Below are positions 1-64,000 of a stretch of 64,000 nucleotides of DNA, one piece after another. Made by a program: the position numbers and the translations under genes. A model generated the notes under the pieces. It did no database searches. It saw only the letters and a program-made list of their open reading frames with translations, and was not told where the DNA came from. This DNA comes from Utricularia gibba (lineage: Eukaryota > Streptophyta > Magnoliopsida > Lamiales > Lentibulariaceae). The stretch is from NCBI GenBank assembly GCA_002189035.1, contig NEEC01000112.1:1-64000 (forward strand). Reading direction: 5' to 3'. Numbering within the stretch: the stretch's first letter is position 1; each line of letters starts with the position of its first letter.

Positions 1-636
1 CCGAAAACCCAACGTTAATAAATGCATCACTTTTTTGGCCGGGCTACAAATGACTATGGGCCAGAGCGCGACTCGACCATTTGCTCGATACTAGTGCCAG
101 CCTAGAGCACCTCGTCAAATATAAATCAGGTTGTTGAGAAAACCATTTGGGCGCTCATGACATCATAACTCCATTAAATGCATCACGATTTTCATCGAGT
201 AGGACCCGATTGGGCTAAGGAGCCAGACCAAACCTTGGGCCCTTACAAAGCTGCCAACGACAGCACCACCTTAAAACGGCAAGCTGTTGCTTGAAAAACC
301 ATGTGGGCAGCCGCCGACAACCCAACGTTAATAAATGCATCACTTCTTTTGACGGGCTACAGCTGACTTTGTCCCCAAGCCCGACCGAATTCCGGCCCGA
401 TCTCGGTGACCCACAAAAGCGCCTTCTCAAGTGTATAGCATGCTGTTGAAAAAAGCATTTTGGGTGGTCTTGAGATCCTCACTTCAATAAAGGTATCACG
501 ATTTTCGTCGAATGGGACCTTATTGTGCTGTGAAGTCAGACCGAACCTTGGGTCCGGACGAAGTTCCCAACACAGCACCCGCCAAAAAACGACAACTTTT
601 CCTTGAAAAGCATGTAGGCAGCCGCCGAAAACCCAA

Positions 637-951
637 CGTTAATAAATGCATCACTTTTTTGGCCGGGCTACAAATGACTATGGGCCAGAGCGCGACTCGA
701 CCATTTGCTCGATACTAGTGCCAGCCTAGAGCACCTCGTCAAATATAAATCAGGTTGTTGAGAAAACCATTTGGGGCGCTCATGACATCATAACTTCATT
801 AAATGCATCACGATTTTCATCGAGTAGGACCCGATTGGGCTAAGGAGCCAGACCAAACCTTGGGCCCTTACAAAGCTGCCAACGACAGCACCCACCTTAA
901 AACGGCAAGCTGTTGCTTGAAAAACCATGTGGGCAGCCGCCGACAACCCAA
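637..951 (+). repeat. Monomer type A (left-block form), reference copy
   Basis: It starts CGTTAATAAATGCATCAC, then TTTTTTGGCCGGGCTAC, and carries CTCGATACTAGTGCC (SpeI core) in the first half. The second half begins near ATTAAATGCATCACG and contains TTGGGCCCTTAC. Its last part (from about 890) does not look like the A monomers of the right block. It reads CACCTTAAAACGGCAAGC, as in type C, and then CCATGTGGGCAGCCGCCGAC, as in type D just before B. This A therefore looks chimeric, with an A body and a C/D tail. Confidence 0.85.
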
Positions 952-1264
952 CGTTAATAAATGCATCACTTCTTTTGACGGGCTACAGCTGACTTTGTCC
1001 CCCAAGCCCGACCCGAATTCCGGCCCGATTTGGGTGACCCACAAAAGCGCCTTCTCAAGTGTATAGCATGCTGTTGAAAAAAGCATTTGGGTGGTCTTGA
1101 GATCCTCACTTCAATAAAGGTATCACGATTTTCGTCGAATGGGACCTTATTGTGCTGTGAAGTCAGACCGAACCTTGGGTCCGGACGAAGTTCCCAACAA
1201 CAGCACCCGCCAAAAAACGACAACTTTTCCTTGAAAAGCATGTAGGCAGCCGCCGAAAACCCAA
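952..1264 (+). repeat. Monomer type B (left-block form), reference copy
   Basis: It starts CGTTAATAAATGCATCAC followed by TTCTTTTGACGGG. Diagnostic features are an EcoRI site in CCGAATTCCGG, a GGTGACCCACAAAAGCG segment, GCATGCTGTTGAAAA, a TTTCGTCGAATGGGACC segment and the tail AAAAAACGACAACTTTTCC, which replaces the TTAAAACGGCAAGCTGTTGC of the other types. It always follows A in this block and is always followed by A. Confidence 0.88.
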
Positions 1265-4200
1265 CGTTAATAAATGCATCACTTTTTTGGCCGGGCTACA
1301 AATGACTATGGGCCAGAGCGCGACTCGACCATTTGCTCGATACTAGTGCCAGCCTAGAGCACCTCGTCAAATATAAATCAGGTTGTTGAGAAAACCATTT
1401 GGGGCGCTCATGACATCATAACTCCATTAAATGCATCACGATTTTCATCGAGTAGGACCCGATTGGGCTAAGGAGCCAGACCAAACCTTGGGCCCTTACA
1501 AAGCTGCCAACGACAGCACCCACCTTAAAACGGCAAGCTGTTGCTTGAAAAACCATGTGGGCAGCCGCCGACAACCCAACGTTAATAAATGCATCACTTC
1601 TTTTGACGGGCTACAGCTGACTTTGTCCCCCAAGCCCGACCCGAATTCCGGCCCGATCTCGGTGACCCACAAAAGCGCCTTCTCAAGTGTATAGCATGCT
1701 GTTGAAAAAAGCATTTGGGGTGGTCTTGAGATCCTCACTTCAATAAAGGTATCACGATTTTCGTCGAATGGGACCTTATTGTGCTGTGAAGTCAGACCGA
1801 ACCTTGGGTCCGGACGAAGTTCCCAACACAGCACCCGCCAAAAAACGACAACTTTTCCTTGAAGAAGCATGTAGGCAGCCGCCGAAAACCCAACGTTAAT
1901 AAATGCATCACTTTTTTGGCCGGGCTACAAATGACTATGGGCCAGAGCGCGACTCGACCATTTGCTCGATACTAGTGCCAGCCTAGAGCACCTCGTCAAA
2001 TATAAATCAGGTTGTTGAGAAAACCATTTGGGGCGCTCATGACATCATAACTCCATTAAATGCATCACGATTTTCATCGAGTAGGACCCGATTGGGCTAA
2101 GGAGCCAGACCAAACCTTGGGCCCTTACAAAGCTGCCAACGACAGCACCCACCTTAAAACGGCAAGCTGTTGCTTGAAAAACCATGTGGGCAGCCGCCGA
2201 CAACCCAACGTTAATAAATGCATCACTTCTTTTGACGGGCTACAGCTGACTTTGTCCCCAAGCCCGACCGAATTCCGGCCCGATCTCGGTGACCCACAAA
2301 AGCGCCTTCTCAAGTGTATAGCATGCTGTTGAAAAAAGCATTTGGGGTGGTCTTGAGATCCTCACTTCAATAAAGGTATCACGATTTTCGTCGAATGGGA
2401 CCTTATTGTGCTGTGAAGTCAGACCGAACCTTGGGTCCGGACGAAGTTCCAACAACAGCACCCGCCAAAAAACGACAACTTTTCCTTGAAAAAGCATGTA
2501 GGCAGCCGCCGAAAACCCAACGTTAATAAATGCATCACTTTTTTGGCCGGGCTACAAATGACTATGGGCCAGAGCGCGACTCGACCATTTGCTCGATACT
2601 AGTGCCAGCCTAGAGCACCTCGTCAAATATAAATCAGGTTGTTGAGAAAACCATTTGGGGCGCTCATGACATCATAACTCATTAAATGCATCACGATTTT
2701 CATCGAGTAGGACCCGATTGGGCTAAGGAGCCAGACCAAACCTTGGGCCCTTACAAAGCTGCCAACGACAGCACCCACCTTAAAACGGCAAGCTGTTGCT
2801 TGAAAAACCATGTGGGCAGCCGCCGACAACCCAACGTTAATAAATGCATCACTTCTTTTGACGGGCTACAGCTGACTTTGTCCCCCAAGCCCGACCCGAA
2901 TTCCGGCCCGATTTGGGTGACCCACAAAAGCGCCTTCTCAAGTGTATAGCATGCTGTTGAAAAAAGCATTTGGGGTGGTCTTGAGATCCTCACTTCAATA
3001 AAGGTAACACGATTTTCGTCGAATGGGACCTTATTGTGCTGTGAAGTCAGACCGAACCTTGGGTCCGGACGAAGTTCCCAACAACAGCACCCGCCAAAAA
3101 ACGACAACTTTTCCTTGAAGAAGCATGTAGGCAGCCGCCGAAAACCCAACGTTAATAAATGCATCACTTTTTTGGCCGGGCTACAAATGACTATGGGCCA
3201 GAGCGCGACTCGACCATTTGCTCGATACTAGTGCCAGCCTAGAGCACCTCGTCAAATATAAATCAGGTTGTTGAGAAAACCATTTGGGGCGCTCATGACA
3301 TCAAACTCATTAAATGCATCACGATTTTCATCGAGTAGGACCCGATTGGGCTAAGGAGCCAGACCAAACCTTGGGCCCTTACAAAGCTGCCAACGACAGC
3401 ACCCACCTTAAAACGGCATGCTGTTGCTTGAAAAACCATGTGGGCAGCCGCCGACAACCCAACGTTAATAAATGCATCACTTCTTTTGACGGGCTACAGC
3501 TGACTTTGTCCCCCAAGCCCGACCCGAATTCCGGCCCGATCTGGTGACCACAAAAGCGCCTTCTCAAGTGTATAGCATGCTGTTGAAAAAAGCATTTGGG
3601 GTGGTCTTGAGATCCTCACTTCAATAAAGGTATCACGATTTTCGTCGAATGGGACCTTATTGTGCTGTGAAGTCAGACCGAACCTTGGGTCCGGACGAAG
3701 TTCCAACAACAGCACCCGCCAAAAAACGACAACTTTTCCTTGAAGAAGCATGTAGGCAGCCGCCGAAAACCCAACGTTAATAAATGCATCACTTTTTTGG
3801 CCGGGCTACAAATGACTATGGGCCAGAGCGCGACTCGACCATTTGCTCGATACTAGTGCCAGCCTAGAGCACCTCGTCAAATATAAATCAGGTTGTTGAG
3901 AAAACCATTTGGGGCGCTCATGACATCATAACTTCATTAAATGCATCACGATTTTCATCGAGTAGGACCCGATTGGGCTAAGGAGCCAGACCAAACCTTG
4001 GGCCCTTACAAAGCTGCCAACGACAGCACCCACCTTAAAACGGCAAGCTGTTGCTTGAAAAACCATGTGGGCAGCCGCCGACAACCCAACGTTAATAAAT
4101 GCATCACTTCTTTTGACGGGCTACAGCTGACTTTGTCCCCAAGCCCGACCCGAATTCCGGCCCGATTTGGGTGACCCACAAAAGCGCCTTCTCAAGTGTA

Positions 4201-7200
4201 TAGCATGCTGTTGAAAAAAGCATTTGGGGTGGTCTTGAGATCCTCACTTCAATAAAGGTATCACGATTTTCGTCGAATGGGACCTTATTGTGCTGTGAAG
4301 TCAGACCGAACCTTGGGTCCGGACGAAGTTCCCAACAACAGCACCCGCCAAAAAAACGACAACTTTTCCTTGAAGAAGCATGTAGGCAGCCGCCGAAAAC
4401 CCAACGTTAATAAATGCATCACTTTTTTGGCCGGGCTACAAATGACTATGGGCCAGAGCGCGACTCGACCATTTGCTCGATACTAGTGCCAGCCTAGAGC
4501 ACCTCGTCAAATATAAATCAGGTTGTTGAGAAAACCATTTGGGGCGCTCATGACATCATAACTCCATTAAATGCATCACGATTTTCATCGAGTAGGACCC
4601 GATTGGGCTAAGGAGCCAGACCAAACCTTGGGCCCTTACAAAGCTGCCAACGACAGCACCCACCTTAAAACGGCATGCTGTTGCTTGAAAAACCATGTGG
4701 GCAGCCGCCGACAACCCAACGTTAATAAATGCATCACTTCTTTTGACGGGCTACAGCTGACTTTGTCCCCCAAGCCCGACCGAATTCCGGCCCGATCTCG
4801 GTGACCCACAAAAGCGCCTTCTCAAGTGTATAGCATGCTGTTGAAAAAAGCATTTGGGTGGTCTTGAGATCCTCACTTCAATAAAGGTATCACGATTTTC
4901 GTCGAATGGGACCTTATTGTGCTGTGAAGTCAGACCGAACCTTGGGTCCGGACGAAGTTCCAACAACAGCACCCGCCAAAAAACGACAACTTTTCCTTGA
5001 AGAAGCATGTAGGCAGCCGCCGAAAACCCAACGTTAATAAATGCATCACTTTTTTGGCCGGGCTACAAATGACTATGGGCCAGAGCGCGACTCGACCATT
5101 TGCTCGATACTAGTGCCAGCCTAGAGCACCTCGTCAAATATAAATCAGGTTGTTGAGAAAACCATTTGGGGCGCTCATGACATCATAACTTCATTAAATG
5201 CATCACGATTTTCATCGAGTAGGACCCGATTGGGCTAAGGAGCCAGACCAAACCTTGGGCCCTTACAAAGCTGCCAACGACAGCACCCACCTTAAAACGG
5301 CAAGCTGTTGCTTGAAAAACCATGTGGGCAGCCGCCGACAACCCAACGTTAATAAATGCATCACTTCTTTTGACGGCTACAGCTGACTTTGTCCCCCAAG
5401 CCCGACCCGAATTCCGGCCCGATTTGGGTGACCCACAAAAGCGCCTTCTCAAGTGTATAGCATGCTGTTGAAAAAAGCATTTGGGGTGGTCTTGAGATCC
5501 TCACTTCAATAAAGGTATCACGATTTTCGTCGAATGGGACCTTATTGTGCTGTGAAGTCAGACCGAACCTTGGGTCCGGACGAAGTTCCCAACAACAGCA
5601 CCCGCCAAAAAACGACAACTTTTCCTTGAAGAAGCATGTAGGCAGCCGCCGAAAACCCAACGTTAATAAATGCATCACTTTTTTGGCCGGGCTACAAATG
5701 ACTATGGGCCAGAGCGCGACTCGACCATTTGCTCGATACTAGTGCCAGCCTAGAGCACCTCGTCAAATATAAATCAGGTTGTTGAGAAAACCATTTGGGG
5801 CGCTCATGACATCATAACTCCATTAAATGCATCACGATTTTCATCGAGTAGGACCCGATTGGGCTAAGGAGCCAGACCAAACCTTGGGCCCTTACAAAGC
5901 TGCCAACGACAGCACCCACCTTAAAACGGCAAGCTGTTGCTTGAAAAACCATGTGGGCAGCCGCCGACAACCCAACGTTAATAAATGCATCACTTCTTTT
6001 GACGGGCTACAGCTGACTTTGTCCCCCAAGCCCGACCCGAATTCCGGCCCGATCTCGGTGACCCACAAAAGCGCCTTCTCAAGTGTATAGCATGCTGTTG
6101 AAAAAAGCATTTGGGGTGGTCTTGAGATCCTCACTTCAATAAAGGTATCACGATTTTCGTCGAATGGGACCTTATTGTGCTGTGAAGTCAGACCGAACCT
6201 TGGGTCCGGACGAAGTTCCCAACAACAGCACCCGCCAAAAAACGACAACTTTTCCTTGAAGAAGCATGTAGGCAGCCGCCGAAAACCCAACGTTAATAAA
6301 TGCATCACTTTTTTGGCCGGGCTACAAATGACTATGGGCCAGAGCGCGACTCGACCATTTGCTCGATACTAGTGCCAGCCTAGAGCACCTCGTCAAATAT
6401 AAATCAGGTTGTTGAGAAAACCATTTGGGGCGCTCATGACATCATAACTTCATTAAATGCATCACGATTTTCATCGAGTAGGACCCGATTGGGCTAAGGA
6501 GCCAGACCAAACCTTGGGCCCTTACAAAGCTGCCAACGACAGCACCCACCTTAAAACGGCAAGCTGTTGCTTGAAAAACCATGTGGGCAGCCGCCGACAA
6601 CCCAACGTTAATAAATGCATCACTTCTTTTGACGGGCTACAGCTGACTTTGTCCCCCAAGCCCGACCGAATTCCGGCCCGATTTGGGTGACCCACAAAAG
6701 CGCCTTCTCAAGTGTATAGCATGCTGTTGAAAAAAGCATTTGGGGTGGTCTTGAGATCCTCACTTCAATAAAGGTATCACGATTTTCGTCGAATGGGACC
6801 TTATTGTGCTGTGAAGTCAGACCGAACCTTGGGTCCGGACGAAGTTCCCAACGACAGCACCCGCCAAAAAACGACAACTTTTCCTTGAAGAAGCATGTAG
6901 GCAGCCGCCGAAAACCCAACGTTAATAAATGCATCACTTTTTTGGCCGGGCTACAAATGACTATGGGCCAGAGCGCGACTCGACCATTTGCTCGATACTA
7001 GTGCCAGCCTAGAGCACCTCGTCAAATATAAATCAGGTTGTTGAGAAAACCATTTGGGGCGCTCATGACATCATAACTCCATTAAATGCATCACGATTTT
7101 CATCGAGTAGGACCCGATTGGGCTAAGGAGCCAGACCAAACCTTGGGCCCTTACAAAGCTGCCAACGACAGCACCCACCTTAAAACGGCATGCTGTTGCT

Positions 7201-10200
7201 TGAAAAACCATGTGGGCAGCCGCCGACAACCCAACGTTAATAAATGCATCACTTCTTTTGACGGGCTACAGCTGACTTTGTCCCCCAAGCCCGACCTGAA
7301 TTCCGGCCCGATCTCGGTGACCCACAAAAGCGCCTTCTCAAGTGTTAGCATGCTGTTGAAAAAAGCATTTGGGGTGGTCTTGAGATCCTCACTTCAATAA
7401 AGGTATCACGATTTTCGTCGAATGGGACCTTATTGTGCTGTGAAGTCAGACCGAACCTTGGGTCCGGACGAAGTTCCCAACAACAGCACCCGCCAAAAAA
7501 CGACAACTTTTCCTTGAAGAAGCATGTAGGCAGCCGCCGAAAACCCAACGTTAATAAATGCATCACTTTTTTGGCCGGGCTACAAATGACTATGGGCCAG
7601 AGCGCGACTCGACCATTTGCTCGATACTAGTGCCAGCCTAGAGCACCTCGTCAAATAAAATCAGGTTGTTGAGAAAACCATTTGGGGCGCTCATGACATC
7701 ATAACTTCATTAAATGCATCACGATTTTCATCGAGTAGGACCCGATTGGGCTAAGGAGCCAGACCAAACCTTGGGCCCTTACAAAGCTGCCAACGACAGC
7801 ACCCACCTTAAAACGGCAAGCTGTTGCTTGAAAAACCATGTGGGCAGCCGCCGACAACCCAACGTTAATAAATGCATCACTTCTTTTGACGGGCTACAGC
7901 TGACTTTGTCCCCAAGCCCGACCCGAATTCCGGCCCGATTTGGGTGACCCACAAAAGCGCCTTCTCAAGTGTTATAGCATGCTGTTGAAAAAAGCATTTG
8001 GGGTGGTCTTGAGATCCTCACTTCAATAAAGGTAACACGATTTTCGTCGAATGGGACCTTATTGTGCTGTGAAGTCAGACCGAACCTTGGGTCCGGACGA
8101 AGTTCCCAACGACAGCACCCGCCAAAAAACGACAACTTTTCCTTGAAGAAGCATGTAGGCAGCCGCCGAAAACCCAACGTTAATAAATGCATCACTTTTT
8201 TGGCCGGGCTACAAATGACTATGGGCCAGAGCGCGACTCGACCATTTGCTCGATACTAGTGCCAGCCTAGAGCACCTCGTCAAATATAAATCAGGTTGTT
8301 GAGAAAACCATTTGGGGCGCTCATGACATCATAACTCCATTAAATGCATCACGATTTTCATCGAGTAGGACCCGATTGGGCTAAGGAGCCAGACCAAACC
8401 TTGGGCCCTTACAAAGCTGCCAACGACAGCACCCACCTTAAAACGGCATGCTGTTGCTTGAAAAACCATGTGGGCAGCCGCCGACAACCCAACGTTAATA
8501 AATGCATCACTTTTTTGACGGGCTACAGCTGACTTTGTCCCCAAGCCCGACCGAATTCCGGCCCGATCTCGGTGACCCACAAAAGCGCCTTCTCAAGTGT
8601 ATAGCATGCTGTTGAAAAAAGCATTTGGGGTGGTCTTGAGATCCTCACTTCAATAAAGGTATCACGATTTTCGTCGAATGGGACCTTATTGTGCTGTGAA
8701 GTCAGACCGAACCTTGGGTCCGGACGAAGTTCTTAACAACAGCACCCGCCAAAAAACGACAACTTTTCCTTGAAAAGCATGTAGGCAGCCGCCGAAAACC
8801 CAACGTTAATAAATGCATCACTTTTTTGGCCGGGCTACAAATGACTATGGGCCAGAGCGCGACTCGACCATTTGCTCGATACTAGTGCCAGCCTAGAGCA
8901 CCTCGTCAAATATAAATCAGGTTTGAGAAAACCATTTGGGGCGCTCATGACATCATAACTCCATTAAATGCATCACGATTTTCATCGAGTAGGACCCGAT
9001 TGGGCTAAGGAGCCAGACCAAACCTTGGGCCCTTACAAAGCTGCCAACGACAGCACCCGCCTTAAAACGGCAAGCTGTTGCTTGAAAAACCATGTGGGCA
9101 GCCGCCGACAACCCAACGTTAATAAATGCATCACTTCTTTTGACGGGCTACAGCTGACTTTGTCCCCCAAGCCCGACCCGAATTCCGGCCGATTTGGGTG
9201 ACCCACAAAAGCGCCTTCTCAAGTGTATAGCATGCTGTTGAAAAAAGCATTTGGGGTGGTCTTGAGATCCTCACTTCAATAAAGGTAACACGATTTTCGT
9301 CGAATGGGACCTTATTGTGCTGTGAAGTCAGACCGAACCTTGGGTCCGGACGAAGTTCCCAACAACAGCACCCGCCAAAAAACGACAACTTTTCCTTGAA
9401 GAAGCATGTAGGCAGCCGCCGAAAACCCAACGTTAATAAATGCATCACTTTTTTGGCCGGGCTACAAATGACTATGGGCCAGAGCGCGACTCGACCATTT
9501 GCTCGATACTAGTGCCAGCCTAGAGCACCTCGTCAAATATAAATCAGGTTGTTGAGAAAACCATTTGGGGCGCTCATGACATCATAACTCCATTAAATGC
9601 ATCACGATTTTCATCGAGTAGGACCCGATTGGGCTAAGGAGCCAGACCAAACCTTGGGCCCTTACAAAGCTGCCAACGACAGCACCCACCTTAAAACGGC
9701 ATGCTGTTGCTTGAAAAACCATGTGGGCAGCCGCCGACAACCCAACGTTAATAAATGCATCACTTCTTTTGACGGGCTACAGCTGACTTTGTCCCCCAAG
9801 CCCGACCTGAATTCCGGCCCGATCTCGGTGACCCACAAAAGCGCCTTCTCAAGTGTATAGCATGCTGTTGAAAAAAGCATTTGGGTGGTCTTGAGATCCT
9901 CACTTCAATAAAGGTATCACGATTTTCGTCGAATGGGACCTTATTGTGCTGTGAAGTCAGACCGAACCTTGGGTCCGGACGAAGTTCCTTAACAACAGCA
10001 CCCGCCAAAAAACGACAACTTTTCCTTGAAAAGCATGTAGGCAGCCGCCGAAAACCCAACGTTAATAAATGCATCACTTTTTTGGCCGGGCTACAAATGA
10101 CTATGGGCCAGAGCGCGACTCGACCATTTGCTCGATACTAGTGCCAGCCTAGAGCACCTCGTCAAATATAAATCAGGTTGTTGAGAAAACCATTTGGGGC

Positions 10201-10683
10201 GCTCATGACATCATAACTTCATTAAATGCATCACGATTTTCATCGAGTAGGACCCGATTGGGCTAAGGAGCCAGACCAAACCTTGGGCCCTTACAAAGCT
10301 GCCAACGACAGCACCCACCTTAAAACGGCAAGCTGTTGCTTGAAAAACCATGTGGGCAGCCGCCGACAACCAACGTTAATAAATGCATCACTTCTTTTGA
10401 CGGGCTACAGCTGACTTTGTCCCCCAAGCCCGACCCGAATTCCGGCCCGATTTGGGTGACCCACAAAAGCGCCTTCTCATGTTTAGCATGCTGTTGAAAA
10501 AGCATTTGGGGTGGTCTTGAGATCCTCACTTCAATAAAGGTATCACGATTTTCGTCGAATGGGACCTTATTGTGCTGTGAAGTCAGACCGAACTTGGGTC
10601 CGGACGAAGTTCCAACAACAGCACCCGCCAAAAAACGACAACTTTTCCTTGAAGAAGCATGTAGGCAGCCGCCGAAAACCCAA

Positions 10684-11785
10684 CGTTAATAATGCATCAC
10701 TTTTTTGGCCGGGCTACAAATGACTATGTGCCAGAGCGCGACTCGACCATTTGCTCGATACTAGTGCCAGCCTAGAGCACCTCGTCAAATATAAATCAGG
10801 TTGTTGAGAAAACCATTTGGGGCTCATGACATCCTAACTTCATTAAATGCATCACGATTTTCATCGAGTAGGACCCGATTGGGCTCAGGAGCCAGACCAA
10901 ACCTTGGCCCTTACAAAGCTGCCAACGACAGCACCCGCCTTAAAACGGCAAGCTGTTGCTTGAAAAACCATGTGGGCAGCCGCCGACAACCCAACGTTAA
11001 TAAATGCATCACTTTTTGACGGGCTACAGCTGACTAAAGCCCGACCTGATTCGGCCCGATCCCGTGACCCCCAAAAGCCTTCTCAAATATAAAGCATGCT
11101 GTTGAAAAAGCATTTGGGGTTCTCATGAGATCCTAACTAAATAAAGGTATCACGATTTTCGTCGAATGGGACCCGATTGGGCTTGTAGCCAGACCGAACC
11201 TGGGCCCTGACGAAGTTCCCAACTACAGCACCCAAAAAAACGCAACTTTCCTTGAAAAACCATTTGGCAGCCGCCGAAAACCCAACGTTATAAATGCATC
11301 ACTTTTTTCCGGGCTACAATGACTATGGGCCTGAGCCCGACCCGACCTCTGGCTGAGCGCCTTCTCAAATATAAATAGGTGTTGAGAAAACCATTTGGGT
11401 TCTCATGACATCCTAACTAAAGCAAATGCATTACGATTTCGTCGAGTACGACCCGATTGGGCTTAGTAGCCAGATCGAACCTGACAAAGAGCACCCGCCT
11501 TAAAACGGCAAGCTATTGCTTGAAAAACCATTTTGAAAACCCAACGTTGATAAATGCATCACATTTTCCGGGCCACAACTGACTATGGCCTGAGCCCGAC
11601 CCGACCAGCGGAGCGCCTTCTCCAAACCAATTGGGTTCTCATGACATCCTAACTATGCATTACGATTTTCGTCGAGTGCGACTCGATTGGGCAGCCAGAC
11701 CGAAGACAAAGCTCCAACGACAGCACCCGCCTTAAAACGGCAAGCTGTTGCTTGAAAAACCATGTGGGCAGCCGCCGACAACCCA
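10684..11785 (+). repeat. Degenerate, deletion-rich monomers
   Basis: Four monomers lie here: 10684-10994 (A-like, 311 bp), 10995-11285 (B/C blend, 291 bp), 11286-11544 (C-like, 259 bp) and 11545-11785 (C/D-like, 241 bp). They lose many short internal pieces, for example the CCAATCCCGAA segment and the stretch around ACAAAGCTCCCAAC. The B-like monomer at 10995 is followed by C, which is exceptional: elsewhere B is followed only by A. This is the most diverged stretch of the window and marks the right edge of the long AB dimer block. Confidence 0.85.
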
Positions 11786-12724
11786 CGTTAATAAATGCAT
11801 CACTTCTTTTGACGGGCTACAGCTGACTTTGGCCAAGCCCGACCCGAATTCCGGCCGATCTCGGTGACCCACAAAAGCGCCTTCTCAAGTGTAAAGCATG
11901 CTGTTGAAAAAAGCATTTGGGGTGGTCATGAGATCCTAACTTCAATAAAGGTATCACGATTTCGTCGAATGGGATCGGATTGTGCTGTGAAGTCAGACCG
12001 AACCTTGGGTCCGGACGAAGTTCCCAACAACAGCACCCGCAAAAAACGACAACTTTTCCTTGAAAAAGCATGTAGGCAGCCGCCGAAAACCCAACGTTAA
12101 TAAATGCATCACTTTTTTGGCCGGGCTACAAATGACTATGGCCAGAGCGCGACTCGACCATTTGCTCGATACTAGTGCCAGCCTAGAGCACCTCGTCAAA
12201 TATAAATCAGGTTGTTGAGAAAACCATTTGGGGCGCTCATGACATCATAACTTCATTAAATGCATCACGATTTTCATCGAGTAGGACCCGATTGGGCTAA
12301 GGAGCCAGACCAAACCTTGGGCCCTTACAAAGCTGCCAACGACAGCACCCACCTTAAAACGGCAAGCTGTTGCTTGAAAAACCATGTGGGCAGCCGCCGA
12401 CAACCCAACGTTAATAAATGCATCACTTCTTTTGACGGGCTACAGCTGACTTTGTCCCCCAAGCCCGACCCGAATTCCGGCCCGATTTGGGTGACCCACA
12501 AAAGCGCCTTCTCATGTTTAAAGCATGCTGTTGAAAAAAGCATTTGGGGTGGTCTTGAGATCCTCACTTCAATAAAGGTATCACGATTTTCGTCGAATGG
12601 GACCTTATTGTGCTGTGAAGTCAGACCGAACCTTGGGTCCGGACGAAGTTCCCAACAACAGCACCCGCCAAAAAACGACAACTTTTCCTTGAAGAAGCAT
12701 GTAGGCAGCCGCCGAAAAACCCAA
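11786..12724 (+). repeat. B monomer plus one clean AB dimer
   Basis: The B monomer at 11786-12094 mixes states: it keeps the EcoRI site but has CTTTGGCC and GTCATGAGATCCTAAC, as in later B monomers. An AB dimer at 12095-12724 (A at 12095, B at 12409) is almost the same as the dimers before 10684, including CATCATAACTTC and GCACCTCGTC. The dimer family thus reappears to the right of the degenerate stretch. Confidence 0.85.
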
Positions 12725-44038: not shown

Positions 44039-44082
44039 CGTTGATAAATGCATCACTTATTTTCCGGGCTACAACTGACTAT

Positions 44083-44248: not shown

Positions 44249-44350
44249 AGACCGAATCTCGGGCCCTGACAAAGCTCCCAACTACAGCACCCACCTTAAA
44301 ACGGCAAGCTGTTGCTTGAAAAACCATTTAGGCAGCCGCCGAAAACCCAT

Positions 44351-48673: not shown

Positions 48674-49598
48674 CGTTAATAAATGCATCACTTTTTTGGC
48701 CGGGCTACAAATGACTATGGGCCAGAGCGCGACTCGACCATTTGCTCGATACTAGTGCCAGCCTAGAGCGCCTCCTCAAATATAAATCAGGTTGTTGAGA
48801 AAACCATTTGGGGTGCTCATGACACCTAAAACTTCAAAAAATGCATCACGATTTTCATCGAGTAACCCGATTGGGCTTAGCTCGGGCCCTGACAAAGCTC
48901 CAACTACAGCACCCACCTTAAAACGGCAAGCTGTTGCTTGAAAAACCATTTAGGCAGCCGCCGAAAACCCATCGTTGATAAATGCATCACTTATTTTCCG
49001 GGCTACAACTGACTATTGGCCTGAGCCCGACCCGACCTCTGGCCCAATCCCGAAACCCTCCGAGGGCGCCTTCTCAAATATATAGCAGAGTGTTGAGAAA
49101 ACCCATTGGGGTTCTCATGACATCCTAACTACATCAAATGCGTTACGATTTCGTCGAGTGCGACCCGATTGGGCTTAGTAGCCAGACCGAATCTCGGGCC
49201 GGACAAAGCTCCCAACGACAGCACCCGACTTTAAATGGCAAGCTATTGCTTGACAAACCATGTGGGCAGCCGCCGACAACCCAACGTTAATAAATGCATC
49301 ACTTCTTTTGCCGGGCTACAGCTGACTTTGGGCTCAAGCCCGACCCGAATCCGGCCCGATCTCGGTGACCCACAAAAGCGCCTTGTCAAGTGTAAAGCAT
49401 GCTGTTGAAAAAACCATTTGGGGTGGTCATGAGATCCTAACTTCAATAAAGGCATCACGATTTTCGTCGAATGGGATCGGATTGTGCTGTGAAGTCAGAC
49501 CGATCCTTGGGTCCGGACGAAGTTCCCAACAACAGCACCCGCAAAAAAACGACAACTTTTCCTCGAAAAAAGCATGTAGGCAGCCGCCGAAAACCCAA
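48674..49598 (+). repeat. Trimer A/C-D-B (925 bp)
   Basis: Monomers start at 48674 (A head, C tail), 48973 (D) and 49285 (B). The A to C switch lies near GAGTAACCCGATTGGGC (about 48860), with nearby losses: the AGCCAGACCGAAT segment is missing between GGGCTTAG and CTCGGGCCC. It interrupts an otherwise uniform tetramer run. Confidence 0.86.
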
Positions 49599-52100: not shown

Positions 52101-53600
52101 CGTTAATAAATGCATCACTTTTTTGGCCGGGCTACAAATGACTATGGGCCAGAGCGCGACTCGACCATTTGCTCGATACTAGTGCCAGCCTAGAGCGCCT
52201 CCTCAAATATAAATCAGGTTGTTGAGAAAACCATTTGGGGTGCTCATGACATCCTAACTTCAAAAAATGCATCACGATTTTCATCGAGTAGCACCCGATT
52301 GGGCTCAGGAGCCAGACCGAACCTTGGGCCCTTACAAAGCTGCCAACGACAGCACCCGCCTTAAAATGGCAAGCTATTGCTTGAAAAACCATTCAGGCAG
52401 CCGCCGAAAACCCAACGTTGATAAATGCATCACTTATTTTCCGGGCTACAACTGACTATGGGCCATAGCCCGACCCGACCTCTGGCCCAATCCCGAAACC
52501 CCCAAGAGCGCCTTCTGAAATATAAAGTAGAGTGTTGAGAAAACCCGTTGGGGTTCTCATGACATCCTAACTAAAGCAAATGCATTACGATTTCGTCGAG
52601 TACGACCCGATTGGGCTTAGTAGCCAGACCGAATCTCGGGCCCTGACAAAGAGCTTAAAACGGCAAGCTGTTGCTTGAAAAACCATTTAGGCAGCCGCCG
52701 AAAACCCATCGTTGATAAATGCATCACTTATTTTCCGGGCTACAACTGACTAAGCCCGACCCGACCTCTGGCCCAATCCCGAGAGCGCCTTCTTGAGAAA
52801 ACCCATTGGGGTTCTCATGACATCCTAACTAAAGCAAATGCATTACGATTTCGTCGAGTACGACCCGATTGGCTTAGTAGCCAGACCGAATCTCGGGCCC
52901 TGACAAAGCTCCCAACTACAGCACCCACCTTAAAACGGCAAGCTGTTGCTTGAAAAACCATTTAGGCAGCCGCCGAAAACCCATCGTTGATAAATGCATC
53001 ACTTATTTTCCGGGCTACAACTGACTATTGGCCTGAGCCCGACCCGACCTCTGGCCCAATCCCGAAACCCTCCGAGCGCCTTCTCAAATATATAGTGTTG
53101 AGAAAACCCATTGGGGTTCTCATGACATCCTAACTACATCAAATGCGTTACGATTTTCGTCGAGTGCGACCCGATTGGGCTTAGTAGCCAGACCGAATCT
53201 CGGGCCGGACAAAGCTCCCAACGACAGCACCCGACTTTAAATGGCAAGCTATTGCTTGAAAACCATGTGGGCAGCCGCCGACAACCAACGTTAATAAATG
53301 CATCACTTCTTTTGCCGGGCTACAGCTGACTTGGGCTCAAGCCCGACCCGAATCCGGCCCGATCTCGGTGACCCACAAAAGCGCCTTGTCAAGTGTAAAG
53401 CATGCTGTTGAAAAAACCATTTGGGGTGGTCATGAGATCCTAACTTCAATAAAGGCATCACGATTTACGTCGAATGGGATCGGATTGTGCTGTGAAGTCA
53501 GACCGAACCTTGGGTCCGGACGAAGTTCCCAACAACAGCACCGCAAAAAAACGACAACTTTTCCTCGAAAAAAGCATGTAGGCAGCCGCCGAAAACCCAA
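52101..53600 (+). repeat. Pentamer with a shortened extra C (1500 bp)
   Basis: Monomers start at 52101 (A), 52416 (C, with a loss at ACAAAGAGCTTAAAACGG), 52710 (C, 275 bp), 52985 (D) and 53289 (B). The extra C joins CCAATCCCGA directly to GAGCGCC and lacks the AAATATAAAGTAGAG segment. The short C at 42831 has similar losses. Confidence 0.87.
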
Positions 53601-56600
53601 CGTTAATAAATGCATCACTTTTTTGGCCGGGCTACAAATGACTATGGGCCAGAGCGCGACTCGACCATTTGCTCGATACTAGTGCCAGCCTAGAGCGCCT
53701 CCTCAAATATAAATCAGGTTGTTGAGAAAACCATTTGGGGTGCTCATGACATCCTAACTTCAAAAAATGCATCACGATTTTCATCGAGTAGCACCCGATT
53801 GGGCTCAGGAGCCAGACCGAACCTTGGGCCCTTACAAAGCTGCCAACGACAGCACCCGCCTTAAAATGGCAAGCTATTGCTTGAAAAACCATTCAGGCAG
53901 CCGCCGAAAACCCAACGTTGATAAATGCATCACTTATTTTCCGGGCTACAACTGACTATGGGCCATAGCCCGACCCGACCTCTGGCCCAATCCCGAAACC
54001 CCCCAAGAGCGCCTTCTGAAATATAAAGTAGAGTGTTGAGAAAACCCGTTGGGGTTCTCATGACATCCTAACTAAAGCAAATGCATTACGATTTCGTCGA
54101 GTACGACCCGATTGGGCTTAGTAGCCAGACCGAATCTCGGGCCCTGACAAAGCTCCCAACTACAGCACCCACCTTAAAACGGCAAGCTGTTGCTTGAAAA
54201 ACCATTTAGGCAGCCGCCGAAAACCCATCGTTGATAAATGCATCACTTATTTTCCGGGCTACAACTGACTATTGGCCTGAGCCCGACCCGACCTCTGGCC
54301 CAATCCCGAAACCCTCCGAGGGCGCCTTCTCAAATATATAGCAGAGTGTTGAGAAAACCCATTGGGGTTCTCATGACATCCTAACTACATCAAATGCGTT
54401 ACGATTTTCGTCGAGTGCGACCCGATTGGGCTTAGTAGCCAGACCGAATCTCGGGCCGGACAAAGCTCCCAACGACAGCACCCGACTTTAAATGGCAAGC
54501 TATTGCTTGACAAACCATGTGGGCAGCCGCCGACAACCCAACGTTAATAAATGCATCACTTCTTTTGCCGGGCTACAGCTGACTTGGGCTCAAGCCCGAC
54601 CCGAATCCGGCCCGATCTCGGTGACCCACAAAAGCGCCTTGTCAAGTGTAAAGCATGCTGTTGAAAAAACCATTTGGGGTGGTCATGAGATCCTAACTTC
54701 AATAAAGGCATCACGATTTTCGTCGAATGGGATCGGATTGTGCTGTGAAGTCAGACCGACCTTGGGTCCGGACGAAGTTCCCAACAACAGCACCCGCAAA
54801 AAAACGACAACTTTTCCTCGAAAAAAGCATGTAGGCAGCCGCCGAAAACCCAACGTTAATAAATGCATCACTTTTTTGGCCGGGCTACAAATGACTATGG
54901 GCCAGAGCGCGACTCGACCATTTGCTCGATACTAGTGCCAGCCTAGAGCGCCTCCTCAAATATAAATCAGGTTGTTGAGAAAACCATTTGGGGTGCTCAT
55001 GACATCCTAACTTCAAAAAATGCATCACGATTTTCATCGAGTAGCACCCGATTGGGCTCAGGAGCCAGACCGAACCTTGGGCCCTTACAAAGCTGCCAAC
55101 GACAGCACCCGCCTTAAAATGGCAAGCTATTGCTTGAAAAACCATTCAGGCAGCCGCCGAAAACCCAACGTTGATAAATGCATCACTTATTTTCCGGGCT
55201 ACAACTGACTATGGGCCATAGCCCGACCCGACCTCTGGCCCAATCCCGAAACCCCCCAAGAGCGCCTTCTGAAATATAAAGTAGAGTGTTGAGAAAACCC
55301 GTTGGGGTTCTCATGACATCCTAACTAAAGCAAATGCATTACGATTTCGTCGAGTACGACCCGATTGGGCTTAGTAGCCAGACCGAATCTCGGGCCCTGA
55401 CAAAGCTCCCAACTACAGCACCCACCTTAAAACGGCAAGCTGTTGCTTGAAAAACCATTTAGGCAGCCGCCGAAAACCCATCGTTGATAAATGCATCACT
55501 TATTTTCCGGGCTACAACTGACTATTGGCCTGAGCCCGACCCGACCTCTGGCCCAATCCCGAAACCCTCCGAGGGCGCCTTCTCAAATATATAGCAGAGT
55601 GTTGAGAAAACCCATTGGGGTTCTCATGACATCCTAACTACATCAAATGCGTTACGATTTTCGTCGAGTGCGACCCGATTGGGCTTAGTAGCCAGACCGA
55701 ATCTCGGGCCGGACAAAGCTCCCAACGACAGCACCCGACTTTAAATGGCAAGCTATTGCTTGACAAACCATGTGGGCAGCCGCCGACAACCCAACGTTAA
55801 TAAATGCATCACTTCTTTTGCCGGGCTACAGCTGACTTTGGGCTCAAGCCCGACCCGAATCCGGCCCGATCTCGGTGACCCACAAAAGCGCCTTGTCAAG
55901 TGTAAAGCATGCTGTTGAAAAAACCATTTGGGGTGGTCATGAGATCCTAACTTCAATAAAGGCATCACGATTTCGTCGAATGGGATCGGATTGTGCTGTG
56001 AAGTCAGACCGATCCTTGGGTCCGGACGAAGTTCCCAACAACAGCACCCGCAAAAAAACGACAACTTTTCCTCGAAAAAAGCATGTAGGCAGCCGCCGAA
56101 AACCCAACGTTAATAAATGCATCACTTTTTTGGCCGGGCTACAAATGACTATGGGCCAGAGCGCGACTCGACCATTTGCTCGATACTAGTGCCAGCCTAG
56201 AGCGCCTCCTCAAATATAAATCAGGTTGTTGAGAAAACCATTTGGGGTGCTCATGACATCCTAACTTCAAAAAATGCATCACGATTTTCATCGAGTAGCA
56301 CCCGATTGGGCTCAGGAGCCAGACCGAACCTTGGGCCCTTACAAAGCTGCCAACGACAGCACCCGCCTTAAAATGGCAAGCTATTGCTTGAAAAACCATT
56401 CAGGCAGCCGCCGAAAACCCAACGTTGATAAATGCATCACTTATTTTCCGGGCTACAACTGACTATGGGCCATAGCCCGACCCGACCTCTGGCCCAATCC
56501 CGAAACCCCCAAGAGCGCCTTCTGAAATATAAAGTAGAGTGTTGAGAAAACCCGTTGGGGTTCTCATGACATCCTAACTAAAGCAAATGCATTACGATTT

Positions 56601-59600
56601 CGTCGAGTACGACCCGATTGGGCTTAGTAGCCAGACCGAATCTCGGGCCCTGACAAAGCTCCCAACTACAGCACCCACCTTAAAACGGCAAGCTGTTGCT
56701 TGAAAAACCATTTAGGCAGCCGCCGAAAACCCATCGTTGATAAATGCATCACTTATTTTCCGGGCTACAACTGACTATTGGCCTGAGCCCGACCCGACCT
56801 CTGGCCCAATCCCGAAACCCTCCGAGGGCGCCTTCTCAAATATATAGCAGAGTGTTGAGAAAACCCATTGGGGTTCTCATGACATCCTAACTACATCAAA
56901 TGCGTTACGATTTTCGTCGAGTGCGACCCGATTGGGCTTAGTAGCCAGACCGAATCTCGGGCCGGACAAAGCTCCCAACGACAGCACCCGCTTTAAATGG
57001 CAAGCTATTGCTTGAAAACCATGTGGGCAGCCGCCGACAACCCAACGTTAATAAATGCATCACTTCTTTTGCCGGGCTACAGCTGACTTTGGGCTCAAGC
57101 CCGACCCGAATCCGGCCCGATCTCGGTGACCCACAAAAGCGCCTTGTCAAGTGTAAAGCATGCTGTTGAAAAAACCATTTGGGGTGGTCATGAGATCCTA
57201 ACTTCAATAAAGGCATCACGATTTTCGTCGAATGGGATCGGATTGTGCTGTGAAGTCAGACCGATCCTTGGGTCCGGACGAAGTTCCCAACAACAGCACC
57301 CGCAAAAAAACGACAACTTTTCCTCGAAAAAAGCATGTAGGCAGCCGCCGAAAACCCAACGTTAATAAATGCATCACTTTTTTGGCCGGGCTACAAATGA
57401 CTATGGGCCAGAGCGCGACTCGACCATTTGCTCGATACTAGTGCCAGCCTAGAGCGCCTCCTCAAATATAAATCAGGTTGTTGAGAAAACCATTTGGGGT
57501 GCTCATGACATCCTAACTTCAAAAAATGCATCACGATTTTCATCGAGTAGCACCCGATTGGGCTCAGGAGCCAGACCGAACCTTGGGCCCTTACAAAGCT
57601 GCCAACGACAGCACCCGCCTTAAAATGGCAAGCTATTGCTTGAAAAACCATTCAGGCAGCCGCCGAAAACCCAACGTTGATAAATGCATCACTTATTTTC
57701 CGGGCTACAACTGACTATGGGCCATAGCCCGACCCGACCTCTGGCCCAATCCCGAAACCCCCAAGAGCGCCTTCTGAAATATAAAGTAGAGTGTTGAGAA
57801 AACCCGTTGGGGTTCTCATGACATCCTAACTAAAGCAAATGCATTACGATTTCGTCGAGTACGACCCGATTGGGCTTAGTAGCCAGACCGAATCTCGGGC
57901 CCTGACAAAGCTCCCAACTACAGCACCCACCTTAAAACGGCAAGCTGTTGCTTGAAAAACCATTTAGGCAGCCGCCGAAAACCCATCGTTGATAAATGCA
58001 TCACTTATTTTCCGGGCTACAACTGACTATTGGCCTGAGCCCGACCCGACCTCTGGCCCAATCCCGAAACCCTCCGAGGGCGCCTTCTCAAATATATAGC
58101 AGAGTGTTGAGAAAACCCATTGGGGTTCTCATGACATCCTAACTACATCAAATGCGTTACGATTTTCGTCGAGTGCGACCCGATTGGGCTTAGTAGCCAG
58201 ACCGAATCTCGGGCCGGACAAAGCTCCCAACGACAGCACCCGACTTTAAATGGCAAGCTATTGCTTGACAAACCATGTGGGCAGCCGCCGACAACCCAAC
58301 GTTAATAAATGCATCACTTCTTTTGCCGGGCTACAGCTGACTTTGGGCTCAAGCCCGACCCGAATCCGGCCCGATCTCGGTGACCCACAAAAGCGCCTTG
58401 TCAAGTGTAAAGCATGCTGTTGAAAAAACCATTTGGGGTGGTCATGAGATCCTAACTTCAATAAAGGCATCACGATTTTCGTCGAATGGGATCGGATTGT
58501 GCTGTGAAGTCAGACCGATCCTTGGGTCCGGACGAAGTTCCCAACAACAGCACCCGCAAAAAAACGACAACTTTTCCTCGAAAAAAGCATGTAGGCAGCC
58601 GCCGAAAACCCAACGTTAATAAATGCATCACTTTTTTGGCCGGGCTACAAATGACTATGGGCCAGAGCGCGACTCGACCATTTGCTCGATACTAGTGCCA
58701 GCCTAGAGCGCCTCCTCAAATATAAATCAGGTTGTTGAGAAAACCATTTGGGGTGCTCATGACATCCTAACTTCAAAAAAATGCATCACGATTTTCATCG
58801 AGTAGCACCCGATTGGGCTCAGGAGCCAGACCGAACCTTGGGCCCTTACAAAGCTGCCAACGACAGCACCCGCCTTAAAATGGCAAGCTATTGCTTGAAA
58901 AACCATTCAGGCAGCCGCCGAAAACCCAACGTTGATAAATGCATCACTTATTTTCCGGGCTACAACTGACTATGGGCCATAGCCCGACCCGACCTCTGGC
59001 CCAATCCCGAAACCCCCAAGAGCGCCTTCTGAAATATAAAGTAGAGTGTTGAGAAAACCCGTTGGGGTTCTCATGACATCCTAACTAAAGCAAATGCATT
59101 ACGATTTCGTCGAGTACGACCCGATTGGGCTTAGTAGCCAGACCGAATCTCGGGCCCTGACAAAGCTCCCAACTACAGCACCCACCTTAAAACGGCAAGC
59201 TGTTGCTTGAAAAACCATTTAGGCAGCCGCCGAAAACCCATCGTTGATAAATGCATCACTTATTTTCCGGGCTACAACTGACTATTGGCCTGAGCCCGAC
59301 CCGACCTCTGGCCCAATCCCGAAACCCTCCGAGGGCGCCTTCTCAAATATATAGCAGAGTGTTGAGAAAACCCATTGGGGTTCTCATGACATCCTAACTA
59401 CATCAAATGCGTTACGATTTTCGTCGAGTGCGACCCGATTGGGCTTAGTAGCCAGACCGAATCTCGGGCCGGACAAAGCTCCCAACGACAGCACCCGACT
59501 TTAAATGGCAAGCTATTGCTTGAAAACCATGTGGGCAGCCGCCGACAACCCAACGTTAATAAATGCATCACTTCTTTTGCCGGGCTACAGCTGACTTTGG

Positions 59601-62600
59601 GCTCAAGCCCGACCCGAATCCGGCCCGATCTCGGTGACCCACAAAAGCGCCTTGTCAAGTGTAAAGCATGCTGTTGAAAAAACCATTTGGGGTGGTCATG
59701 AGATCCTAACTTCAATAAAGGCATCACGATTTTCGTCGAATGGGATCGGATTGTGCTGTGAAGTCAGACCGAACCTTGGGTCCGGACGAAGTTCCCAACA
59801 ACAGCACCCGCAAAAAAACGACAACTTTTCCTCGAAAAAAGCATGTAGGCAGCCGCCGAAAACCCAACGTTAATAAATGCATCACTTTTTTGGCCGGGCT
59901 ACAAATGACTATGGGCCAGAGCGCGACTCGACCATTTGCTCGATACTAGTGCCAGCCTAGAGCGCCTCCTCAAATATAAATCAGGTTGTTGAGAAAACCA
60001 TTTGGGGTGCTCATGACATCCTAACTTCAAAAAATGCATCACGATTTTCATCGAGTAGCACCCGATTGGGCTCAGGAGCCAGACCGAACCTTGGGCCCTT
60101 ACAAAGCTGCCAACGACAGCACCCGCCTTAAAATGGCAAGCTATTGCTTGAAAAACCATTCAGGCAGCCGCCGAAAACCCAACGTTGATAAATGCATCAC
60201 TTATTTTCCGGGCTACAACTGACTATGGGCCATAGCCCGACCCGACCTCTGGCCCAATCCCGAAACCCCCAAGAGCGCCTTCTGAAATATAAAGTAGAGT
60301 GTTGAGAAAACCCGTTGGGGTTCTCATGACATCCTAACTAAAGCAAATGCATTACGATTTCGTCGAGTACGACCCGATTGGGCTTAGTAGCCAGACCGAA
60401 TCTCGGGCCCTGACAAAGCTCCCAACTACAGCACCCACCTTAAAACGGCAAGCTGTTGCTTGAAAAACCATTTAGGCAGCCGCCGAAAACCCATCGTTGA
60501 TAAATGCATCACTTATTTTCCGGGCTACAACTGACTATTGGCCTGAGCCCGACCCGACCTCTGGCCCAATCCCGAAACCCTCCGAGGGCGCCTTCTCAAA
60601 TATATAGCAGAGTGTTGAGAAAACCCATTGGGGTTCTCATGACATCCTAACTACATCAAATGCGTTACGATTTTCGTCGAGTGCGACCCGATTGGGCTTA
60701 GTAGCCAGACCGAATCTCGGGCCGGACAAAGCTCCCAACGACAGCACCCGCCTTTAAATGGCAAGCTATTGCTTGACAAACCATGTGGGCAGCCGCCGAC
60801 AACCCAACGTTAATAAATGCATCACTTCTTTTGCCGGGCTACAGCTGACTTGGGCTCAAGCCCGACCCGAATCCGGCCCGATCTCGGTGACCCACAAAAG
60901 CGCCTTGTCAAGTGTAAAGCATGCTGTTGAAAAAACCATTTGGGGTGGTCATGAGATCCTAACTTCAATAAAGGCATCACGATTTTCGTCGAATGGGATC
61001 GGATTGTGCTGTGAAGTCAGACCGATCCTTGGGTCCGGACGAAGTTCCCAACAACAGCACCCGCAAAAAAACGACAACTTTTCCTCGAAAAAAGCATGTA
61101 GGCAGCCGCCGAAAACCCAACGTTAATAAATGCATCACTTTTTTGGCCGGGCTACAAATGACTATGGGCCAGAGCGCGACTCGACCATTTGCTCGATACT
61201 AGTGCCAGCCTAGAGCGCCTCCTCAAATATAAATCAGGTTGTTGAGAAAACCATTTGGGGTGCTCATGACATCCTAACTTCAAAAAATGCATCACGATTT
61301 TCATCGAGTAGCACCCGATTGGGCTCAGGAGCCAGACCGAACCTTGGGCCCTTACAAAGCTGCCAACGACAGCACCCGCCTTAAAATGGCAAGCTATTGC
61401 TTGAAAAACCATTCAGGCAGCCGCCGAAAACCCAACGTTGATAAATGCATCACTTATTTTCCGGGCTACAACTGACTATGGGCCATAGCCCGACCCGACC
61501 TCTGGCCCAATCCCGAAACCCCCCAAGAGCGCCTTCTGAAATATAAAGTAGAGTGTTGAGAAAACCCGTTGGGGTTCTCATGACATCCTAACTAAAGCAA
61601 ATGCATTACGATTTCGTCGAGTACGACCCGATTGGGCTTAGTAGCCAGACCGAATCTCGGGCCCTGACAAAGCTCCCAACTACAGCACCCACCTTAAAAC
61701 GGCAAGCTGTTGCTTGAAAAACCATTTAGGCAGCCGCCGAAAACCCATCGTTGATAAATGCATCACTTATTTTCCGGGCTACAACTGACTATTGGCCTGA
61801 GCCCGACCCGACCTCTGGCCCAATCCCGAAACCCTCCGAGGGCGCCTTCTCAAATATATAGCAGAGTGTTGAGAAAACCCATTGGGGTTCTCATGACATC
61901 CTAACTACATCAAATGCGTTACGATTTTCGTCGAGTGCGACCCGATTGGGCTTAGTAGCCAGACCGAATCTCGGGCCGGACAAAGCTCCCAACGACAGCA
62001 CCCGACTTTAAATGGCAAGCTATTGCTTGACAAACCATGTGGGCAGCCGCCGACAACCCAACGTTAATAAATGCATCACTTCTTTTGCCGGGCTACAGCT
62101 GACTTTGGGCTCAAGCCCGACCCGAATCCGGCCCGATCTCGGTGACCCACAAAAGCGCCTTGTCAAGTGTAAAGCATGCTGTTGAAAAAACCATTTGGGG
62201 TGGTCATGAGATCCTAACTTCAATAAAGGCATGTCACGATTTTCGTCGGGATCGGATTGTGCTGTGAAGTCAGACCGATCCTTGGGTCCGGACGAAGTTC
62301 CCAACAACAGCACCCGCAAAAAAACGACAACTTTTCCTCGAAAAAAGCATGTAGGCAGCCGCCGAAAACCCAACGTTAATAAATGCATCACTTTTTTGGC
62401 CGGGCTACAAATGACTATGGGCCAGAGCGCGACTCGACCATTTGCTCGATACTAGTGCCAGCCTAGAGCGCCTCCTCAAATATAAATCAGGTTGTTGAGA
62501 AAACCATTTGGGGTGCTCATGACATCCTAACTTCAAAAAATGCATCACGATTTTCATCGAGTAGCACCCGATTGGGCTCAGGAGCCAGACCGAACCTTGG

Positions 62601-63625
62601 GCCCTTACAAAGCTGCCAACGACAGCACCCGCCTTAAAATGGCAAGCTATTGCTTGAAAAACCATTCAGGCAGCCGCCGAAAACCCAACGTTGATAAATG
62701 CATCACTTATTTTCCGGGCTACAACTGACTATGGGCCATAGCCCGACCCGACCTCTGGCCCAATCCCGAAACCCCCAAGAGCGCCTTCTGAAATATAAAG
62801 TAGAGTGTTGAGAAAACCCGTTGGGGTTCTCATGACATCCTAACTAAAGCAAATGCATTACGATTTCGTCGAGTACGACCCGATTGGGCTTAGTAGCCAG
62901 ACCGAATCTCGGGCCCTGACAAAGCTCCCAACTACAGCACCCACCTTAAAACGGCAAGCTGTTGCTTGAAAAACCATTTAGGCAGCCGCCGAAAACCCAT
63001 CGTTGATAAATGCATCACTTATTTTCCGGGCTACAACTGACTATTGGCCTGAGCCCGACCCGACCTCTGGCCCAATCCCGAAACCCTCCGAGGGCGCCTT
63101 CTCAAATATATAGCAGAGTGTTGAGAAAACCCATTGGGGTTCTCATGACATCCTAACTACATCAAATGCGTTACGATTTTCGTCGAGTGCGACCCGATTG
63201 GGCTTAGTAGCCAGACCGAATCTCGGGCCGGACAAAGCTCCCAACGACAGCACCCGACTTTAAATGGCAAGCTATTGCTTGAAAAACCATGTGGGCAGCC
63301 GCCGACAACCCAACGTTAATAAATGCATCACTTCTTTTGCCGGGCTACAGCTGACTTTGGGCTCAAGCCCGACCCGAATCCGGCCCGATCTCGGTGACCC
63401 ACAAAAGCGCCTTGTCAAGTGTAAAGCATGCTGTTGAAAAAACCATTTGGGGTGGTCATGAGATCCTAACTTCAATAAAGGCATCACGATTTCGTCGAAT
63501 GGGATCGGATTGTGCTGTGAAGTCAGACCGACCTTGGGTCCGGACGAAGTTCCCAACAACAGCACCCGCAAAAAAACGACAACTTTTCCTCGAAAAAAGC
63601 ATGTAGGCAGCCGCCGAAAACCCAA
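53601..63625 (+). repeat. Tetramer HOR run, 8 copies of ~1253 bp
   Basis: Units start at 53601, 54854, 56108, 57360, 58614, 59868, 61121 and 62374, spaced 1252-1254 bp. This is the most homogeneous stretch. Variation is limited mainly to the C5/C6 run in type C, the D tail and several positions in B. One B (near 62228) reads GGCATGTCACG and lacks AATG in GTCGGGATCGG. Confidence 0.95.
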
Positions 63626-64000
63626 CGTTAATAAATGCATCACTTTTTTGGCCGGGCTACAAATGACTATGGGCCAGAGCGCGACTCGACCATTTGCTCG
63701 ATACTAGTGCCAGCCTAGAGCGCCTCCTCAAATATAAATCAGGTTGTTGAGAAAACCATTTGGGGTGCTCATGACATCCTAACTTCAAAAAATGCATCAC
63801 GATTTTCATCGAGTAGCACCCGATTGGGCTCAGGAGCCAGACCGAACCTTGGGCCCTTACAAAGCTGCCAACGACAGCACCCGCCTTAAAATGGCAAGCT
63901 ATTGCTTGAAAAACCATTCAGGCAGCCGCCGAAAACCCAACGTTGATAAATGCATCACTTATTTTCCGGGCTACAACTGACTATGGGCCATAGCCCGACC
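63626..64000 (+). repeat. Next tetramer, cut by the window end
   Basis: A complete A monomer (63626-63940) is followed by the first 60 bases of a C monomer ending in GGGCCATAGCCCGACC. The array evidently continues beyond the window. Confidence 0.93.

What the first reader, a model, noticed from the sequence alone, without database searches (positions are those of the whole stretch)
1..64000. Several HOR classes nested in one contiguous 64-kb array
Repeat structure exists at four levels: half-unit (~156 bp), monomer (~313 bp), short HOR (AB dimer, A/C-D-B trimer, ACDB tetramer, ACCDB pentamer) and longer HOR (octamer ~2.5 kb, decamer ~3.13 kb). The classes occupy separate neighbouring domains and transitions between them are visible. 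Most satellite windows show one dominant period; here the whole series lies in one window.
Basis: seen in the sequence. Interest (0 to 1): 0.7.

Follow-up and report, generated by a model that had tools for sequence, protein, structure and literature searches.

The report
Nested satellite DNA in bladderwort
The window is one uninterrupted block of a 313-base satellite repeat, arranged in several nested larger repeats, almost certainly from the tiny-genome carnivorous plant Utricularia gibba; nested satellites are common, but this plant's centromeres have been described as lacking satellites, so an abundant candidate centromere repeat is worth knowing about.

Summary
All 64 kb is a head-to-tail, one-strand array of 205 monomers of ~313 bp; each monomer is itself an old dimer of ~156-bp halves (66-77% alike). 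Order is far from random. Corrections: decamer and octamer have only about two full copies each, and a nonamer (ACCDB-ACDB, two copies) was missed. No inserted element or RNA family was found. The assembly (100.09 Mb, 516 contigs, plastid rbcL, TTTAGGG telomeres, a 6.82-Mb contig matching 'Unitig_8') fits Utricularia gibba. The satellite superfamily makes up roughly 2.3-6.2 Mb, mostly in small all-satellite contigs; on one 3.7-Mb contig it fills the inner 218 kb behind a telomere-capped 3.49-Mb arm. Two telomere-to-telomere contigs lack it. Best reading: a (peri)centromeric satellite of some chromosomes, shaped by unequal exchange or break-induced copying. HORs are widespread, so this is a new member of a known kind; the interest is that U. 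gibba centromeres were reported to lack satellites. Centromere function was not tested.

The parts
1..64000 (+). Single uninterrupted satellite array, 205 monomers of ~313 bp; continues to the end of contig C438 (75,494 bp)
   Evidence: HMM tiling; contig end also satellite
6..10987 (+). AB dimer domain (629-bp HOR), 35 monomers in perfect alternation
   Evidence: lag-2 divergence 0.9%, lag-1 25.9%
10988..11778 (+). Ragged border: three shortened monomers (about 290, 257 and 241 bp)
11779..18321 (+). Mixed region: B-a-b-A, then ACCDB pentamer and ACDB tetramer alternating, i.e. a nonamer (~2.8 kb) present about twice
   Evidence: lag-9 divergence 2.7%; type strings
17389..21750 (+). AC dimer tract with one CC doubling; overlaps the end of the mixed region
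21125..31772 (+). ACACACACDB decamer (3,130 bp): two full units (23,633-26,763 and 26,764-29,889) with partial units on both sides
   Evidence: lag-10 divergence 0.2%; strings
31146..36133 (+). DBACADBA octamer (~2.5 kb), two full units
   Evidence: lag-8 divergence 1.7%, below all 500 shuffles
36134..40175 (+). Mixed short units between octamer and tetramer domains (AB, ACDB, ACCDB, ADB)
40176..64000 (+). ACDB tetramer domain (1,253-bp HOR), nearly identical copies from 53.6 kb onward
   Evidence: lag-4 divergence 0.0-0.1% at 53.6-64 kb; same tetramer on C47, C109 and C140
42365..43096 (+). Broken monomers inside the tetramer domain; further shortened ones near 48.1-48.4 kb and 52.4-53.3 kb

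Best explanation
This is an array of the dominant satellite of Utricularia gibba. Shown: a 156-bp unit doubled into a 313-bp monomer; monomers diverged into types; AB, AC and ACDB blocks were then duplicated, deleted and re-amplified, giving neighbouring domains whose equivalent copies are about 0-3% diverged while different types differ by 7-26%. Inferred: the copying is by unequal exchange or break-induced replication, and the arrays lie at or beside the centromeres of some chromosomes, where they are the DNA on which CENH3 chromatin or pericentromeric heterochromatin sits. On this view the sequence carries no coded message: function would come from length, homogeneity and nucleosome-sized periodicity (156 bp), not from a specific protein box.
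For: Tiling, types and HOR lags. Same HORs on other contigs with unit additions and losses. Abundance: 17-mer box 7,470 copies, 24-mer with up to 3 mismatches 19,847 sites, reversed controls 0; the latter hits 204 of 205 window monomers. Contig C213 begins with telomere repeats and runs 3.486 Mb to a Ty1/copia element, then satellite in all 14 samples over the last 218 kb. C414 begins in the satellite and C402 ends in a tandem that includes it. Seven of ten small contigs sampled blind were this superfamily. Species: 100.09 Mb in 516 contigs, intact plastid rbcL, telomere-capped contigs, C451 = 6.82 Mb, against NEEC01 with 518 contigs and 101 Mb (PMC6982007) and Unitig_8 of 6.8 Mb (PMC8333044). 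A CENH3-like exon is present on C375.
Against: No CENH3 ChIP or FISH data. C3 (5.35 Mb) and C4 (3.85 Mb) have telomeres at both ends and no copy of the 17-mer; C1 and C2 also have none, so the satellite is not on every chromosome. Other arm contigs end in different tandem repeats (339-bp, 535-bp and a 2,324-bp composite). A subtelomeric position at the far end of C213's chromosome is not excluded.
Confidence: 0.6

Rival explanations
1. The satellite is non-centromeric heterochromatin (subtelomeric or interstitial knob-like blocks) on a few chromosomes.
For: Absent from C1-C4; most copies are on unplaced contigs; arm contigs end in several different tandem repeats.
Against: On C213 it lies at the inner end of a telomere-capped 3.49-Mb arm; the largest telomere-capped contigs are about 4-8 Mb, so that is a mid-chromosome position; none is found beside the telomeres sampled.
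Confidence: 0.3
2. The domain borders are assembly joins, so that unrelated arrays were stitched into one contig.
For: Old long-read contigs; near-identical tetramer copies are hard to assemble; single-base deletions in homopolymers remain.
Against: All borders but one are in monomer register and share types with both sides; the exception at 11 kb has decayed monomers, as expected of an old array edge; independent contigs show the same short HORs with the same kind of unit changes.
Confidence: 0.1
3. The satellite carries a conserved protein-binding box (CENP-B-box-like) that drives HOR structure.
For: A 40-bp block GGCAGCCGCCGAAAACCCAACGTTRATAAATGCATCACTT is nearly unchanged among the window's types (best of four window sizes tried, P = 0.002).
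Against: Across 13 deeper subfamilies the best 17-bp window is no better than shuffled columns (0.910 against a mean of 0.912); no CENP-B box core match in the window.
Confidence: 0.07

Closest known systems
Human alpha satellite, suprachromosomal families and local-nested HORs
   Same: Types A and B form a dimer that underlies longer HORs; layered domains with the most homogeneous copies together; nested subunit amplification (PMC8997354, PMC10053651)
   Different: Unrelated sequence, 313-bp not 171-bp monomer, no CENP-B box, centromere function untested
New World monkey 343-bp alpha satellite
   Same: Monomer is an old dimer whose two halves still align (PMC4053949)
   Different: Unrelated sequence and lineage
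Arabidopsis and switchgrass centromere satellites
   Same: Plant satellites with multi-monomer HORs, some including truncated monomers (PMC4053949, PMC10053651)
   Different: Unrelated, shorter monomers (175 and 166 bp in switchgrass, PMC4053949; about 178 bp in Arabidopsis, from general knowledge); here the types within one array differ by up to 26%
Genlisea nigrocaulis 161-bp repeat Gn7c161 (same family, Lentibulariaceae)
   Same: Nucleosome-length unit, most abundant tandem repeat of a tiny genome, centromere-associated (PMC4542322)
   Different: Its published primers have no match in the window with up to 3 mismatches; full sequence not available here

Membership tests
Higher-order-repeat satellite | Multimer copies much more alike than adjacent monomers | tested here: met
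   lag 2/4/8/9/10 against lag 1 divergence
Higher-order-repeat satellite | Head-to-tail tandem arrays, non-coding | tested here: met
   single-strand tiling; only mechanical ORFs of up to 161 aa, repeated with the array; no Rfam match
Higher-order-repeat satellite | Same HOR on independent contigs | tested here: met
   C47, C109, C140, C92
Centromeric satellite | CENH3 chromatin on the array | not testable with these tools
   no ChIP data; a CENH3-like exon exists on C375
Centromeric satellite | Interior position on chromosomes | tested here: inconclusive
   C213 inner end, C414 start, C402 end; other chromosomes not resolved
Centromeric satellite | Present on all chromosomes (common, not a strict requirement) | tested here: not met
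   17-mer absent from C1-C4, including telomere-to-telomere C3 and C4
Alpha-satellite-like CENP-B system | CENP-B box | tested here: not met
   0 matches to TTCGNNNNANNCGGG
Genlisea Gn7c161 family | Sequence match to the published primers | tested here: not met

The most novel reading that the evidence does not exclude
U. gibba has mixed centromeres: some chromosomes without this satellite (those that assembled end to end) and others with long HOR arrays of it or of other families. The published view that its centromeres lack satellites would then come from judging only the chromosomes that were easy to assemble.
Probability: 0.45. Interest if true: 0.6.

Novelty: new member of a known kind. 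Interest (0 to 1): 0.43.

Why it matters
U. gibba is a textbook case of a minimal plant genome, and its putative centromeres were described as lacking satellite repeats (PMC8333044, citing Lan et al. 2017). A satellite of about 2-6% of the assembly, with layered HORs and one placed array behind a telomere-capped arm, gives a concrete probe set to test whether those centromeres are satellite-free, satellite-based or mixed. The series AB, AC, ACDB, ACCDB, octamer and decamer in one 64-kb stretch is also a clear record of how longer repeat units can grow from shorter ones.

Tried and rejected
rRNA search for taxonomy failed. Lan et al. 2017 is not held, so its centromere text is cited only through PMC8333044. 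A conserved protein-binding box was tested and not supported across subfamilies. CENP-B box: none. Genlisea repeat: no primer match. A search for the 11-kb border on other contigs could not be scored. One pattern was designed with B (C/G/T) where a mutated base was meant, so it matched intact copies; it is used only as a count of near-exact copies. Pattern hit lists stop at 100 places, sorted by contig, so only contigs up to about C133 were seen fully for any pattern. No paper describing this satellite in U. gibba turned up in the searches made; most subscription papers are not in that library.

Full report
What is there. A monomer HMM built from the window tiles it from base 6 to 64,000 on one strand, with no inserted element and only a few shortened copies. 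The 205 monomers average about 313 bp. A differs from C by 16% and from B by 22-26%. Cutting each well-sampled consensus near its middle and aligning the halves gives 66-77% identity, so the 313-bp monomer is itself an old dimer of a ~156-bp unit, and 156/157 bp is also a peak of the base autocorrelation.

HOR structure. Mean divergence between monomers k apart has deep minima that change along the window: lag 2 (0.9%, against 25.9% at lag 1) in the AB domain to 11.0 kb; lag 9 (2.7%) at 13-18 kb; lag 10 (0.2%) at 21-28 kb; lag 8 (1.7%) at 31-36 kb; lag 4 (2.4%, falling to 0.0-0.1% beyond 53.6 kb) in the right-hand 20 kb. Shuffling monomer order inside a domain never reached the nonamer, decamer, octamer or tetramer minima, and five-letter entropy of the type string is 4.65 bits against at least 7.20 in 2000 shuffles.

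Is it an assembly artefact? It cannot be settled without reads. In favour of real structure: all borders but one are in monomer register, and the exception at 11 kb is decayed as an array edge would be. Contig C47 carries the same ACDB tetramer with occasional ACCDB, ADB and shortened monomers; C109 mixes ACDB, ADB and ACD; C140 is pure ACDB in the 9 kb read; C92 is AB with aCb trimers. Single-base deletions, many of them in homopolymers, remain between copies and are probably residual read error rather than biology.

Which organism. The window is bases 1-64,000 of contig C438 (75,494 bp, satellite to its end) in an assembly of 100,091,633 bases and 516 contigs. It has an intact plastid-type rbcL frame on contig C516 and plant telomere repeats on several large contigs. 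The published U. gibba assembly has 518 contigs (NEEC01) and 101 Mb (PMC6982007), with Unitig_8 of 6.8 Mb (PMC8333044); C451 here is 6,822,880 bp. I take the species as U. gibba, by inference and not by a direct record match.

How much, and where. A 17-mer present in 203 of 205 window monomers has 7,470 exact copies in the genome, and the longer 24-mer with up to three mismatches has 19,847 sites; the reversed controls have none. That is about 2.3 to 6.2 Mb of satellite; the upper figure assumes that one site means one monomer, as it does in the window. Of ten small contigs chosen without regard to content and readable at the sampled end, seven are this superfamily and three a different ~535-bp satellite. 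Subfamilies are 66-90% alike; a tree puts A with C/D, B apart, and the C213/C34/C264/C212 copies in another group. On C213 (3.70 Mb) telomere repeats stand at base 1, a Ty1/copia element at about 3.481-3.486 Mb, and satellite from 3,486,175 to the contig end, in all 14 places sampled. C414 starts in the satellite, and C402 ends in a 2,324-bp tandem that contains it. C3 and C4 have telomeres at both ends and, like C1 and C2, not one copy of the 17-mer. Other arm contigs stop in different tandem repeats (C451 and C244: 339 bp; C505: 535 bp).

What it most likely is. Abundance, nucleosome-length halves, homogeneous HOR domains and the inner-end position on C213 make a centromeric or pericentromeric satellite of some chromosomes the best reading (0.6). 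It is an inference: there is no CENH3 mapping. The genome does encode a CENH3-like exon, so CENH3 centromeres are expected. The growth of HORs fits the unequal-exchange and break-induced-replication models reviewed in PMC8997354: starting from AB and AC blocks, single additions or losses of one block give ACDB, ACCDB, ADB, the octamer and the decamer. Which of AB or ACDB came first is not decided. No conserved protein-binding box could be shown.

Novelty. HORs are found in 76 of 171 species surveyed (PMC4053949), and nested ones in human and Arabidopsis (PMC10053651). This is a new member of a known kind. The part worth following is the conflict with the statement that U. gibba putative centromeric regions lack satellite repeats (PMC8333044): the two contigs seen here to run from telomere to telomere do lack this one, while the unassembled part is full of it.

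Noticed in passing
G000:C213:3481400-3486170 (L029:1-4770): A Ty1/copia-like retrotransposon (recognised by eye from its gag, integrase and reverse-transcriptase reading) abuts the 218-kb satellite block.
   Followed up: partly
G000:C375:2692400-2694100 (L087): CENH3-like exon reading [32 protein letters not shown] on the minus strand; plausible CENH3 gene of this plant.
   Followed up: partly
C214, C320, C400 and start of C505 (L068, L070, L071, L084, L110, L118): A second, unrelated satellite with ~535-bp period, also at the end of a 3.45-Mb contig.
   Followed up: partly
Ends of C451 and C244 (L058, L088, L092, L108, L112): A third tandem repeat of ~339 bp at the inner ends of telomere-capped contigs; the two contigs' versions are about 75% alike, which hints at chromosome-specific end satellites.
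   Followed up: partly
End of C402 (L094, L099, L100): A 2,324-bp tandem unit that contains several diverged 313-bp monomers, so part of the satellite was captured into a larger repeat.
   Followed up: partly
Starts of C375 and C409 (L081, L086): The two large contigs begin in sequence that is 91% alike over 400 bp, perhaps another shared repeat or a duplicated region.
   Followed up: no
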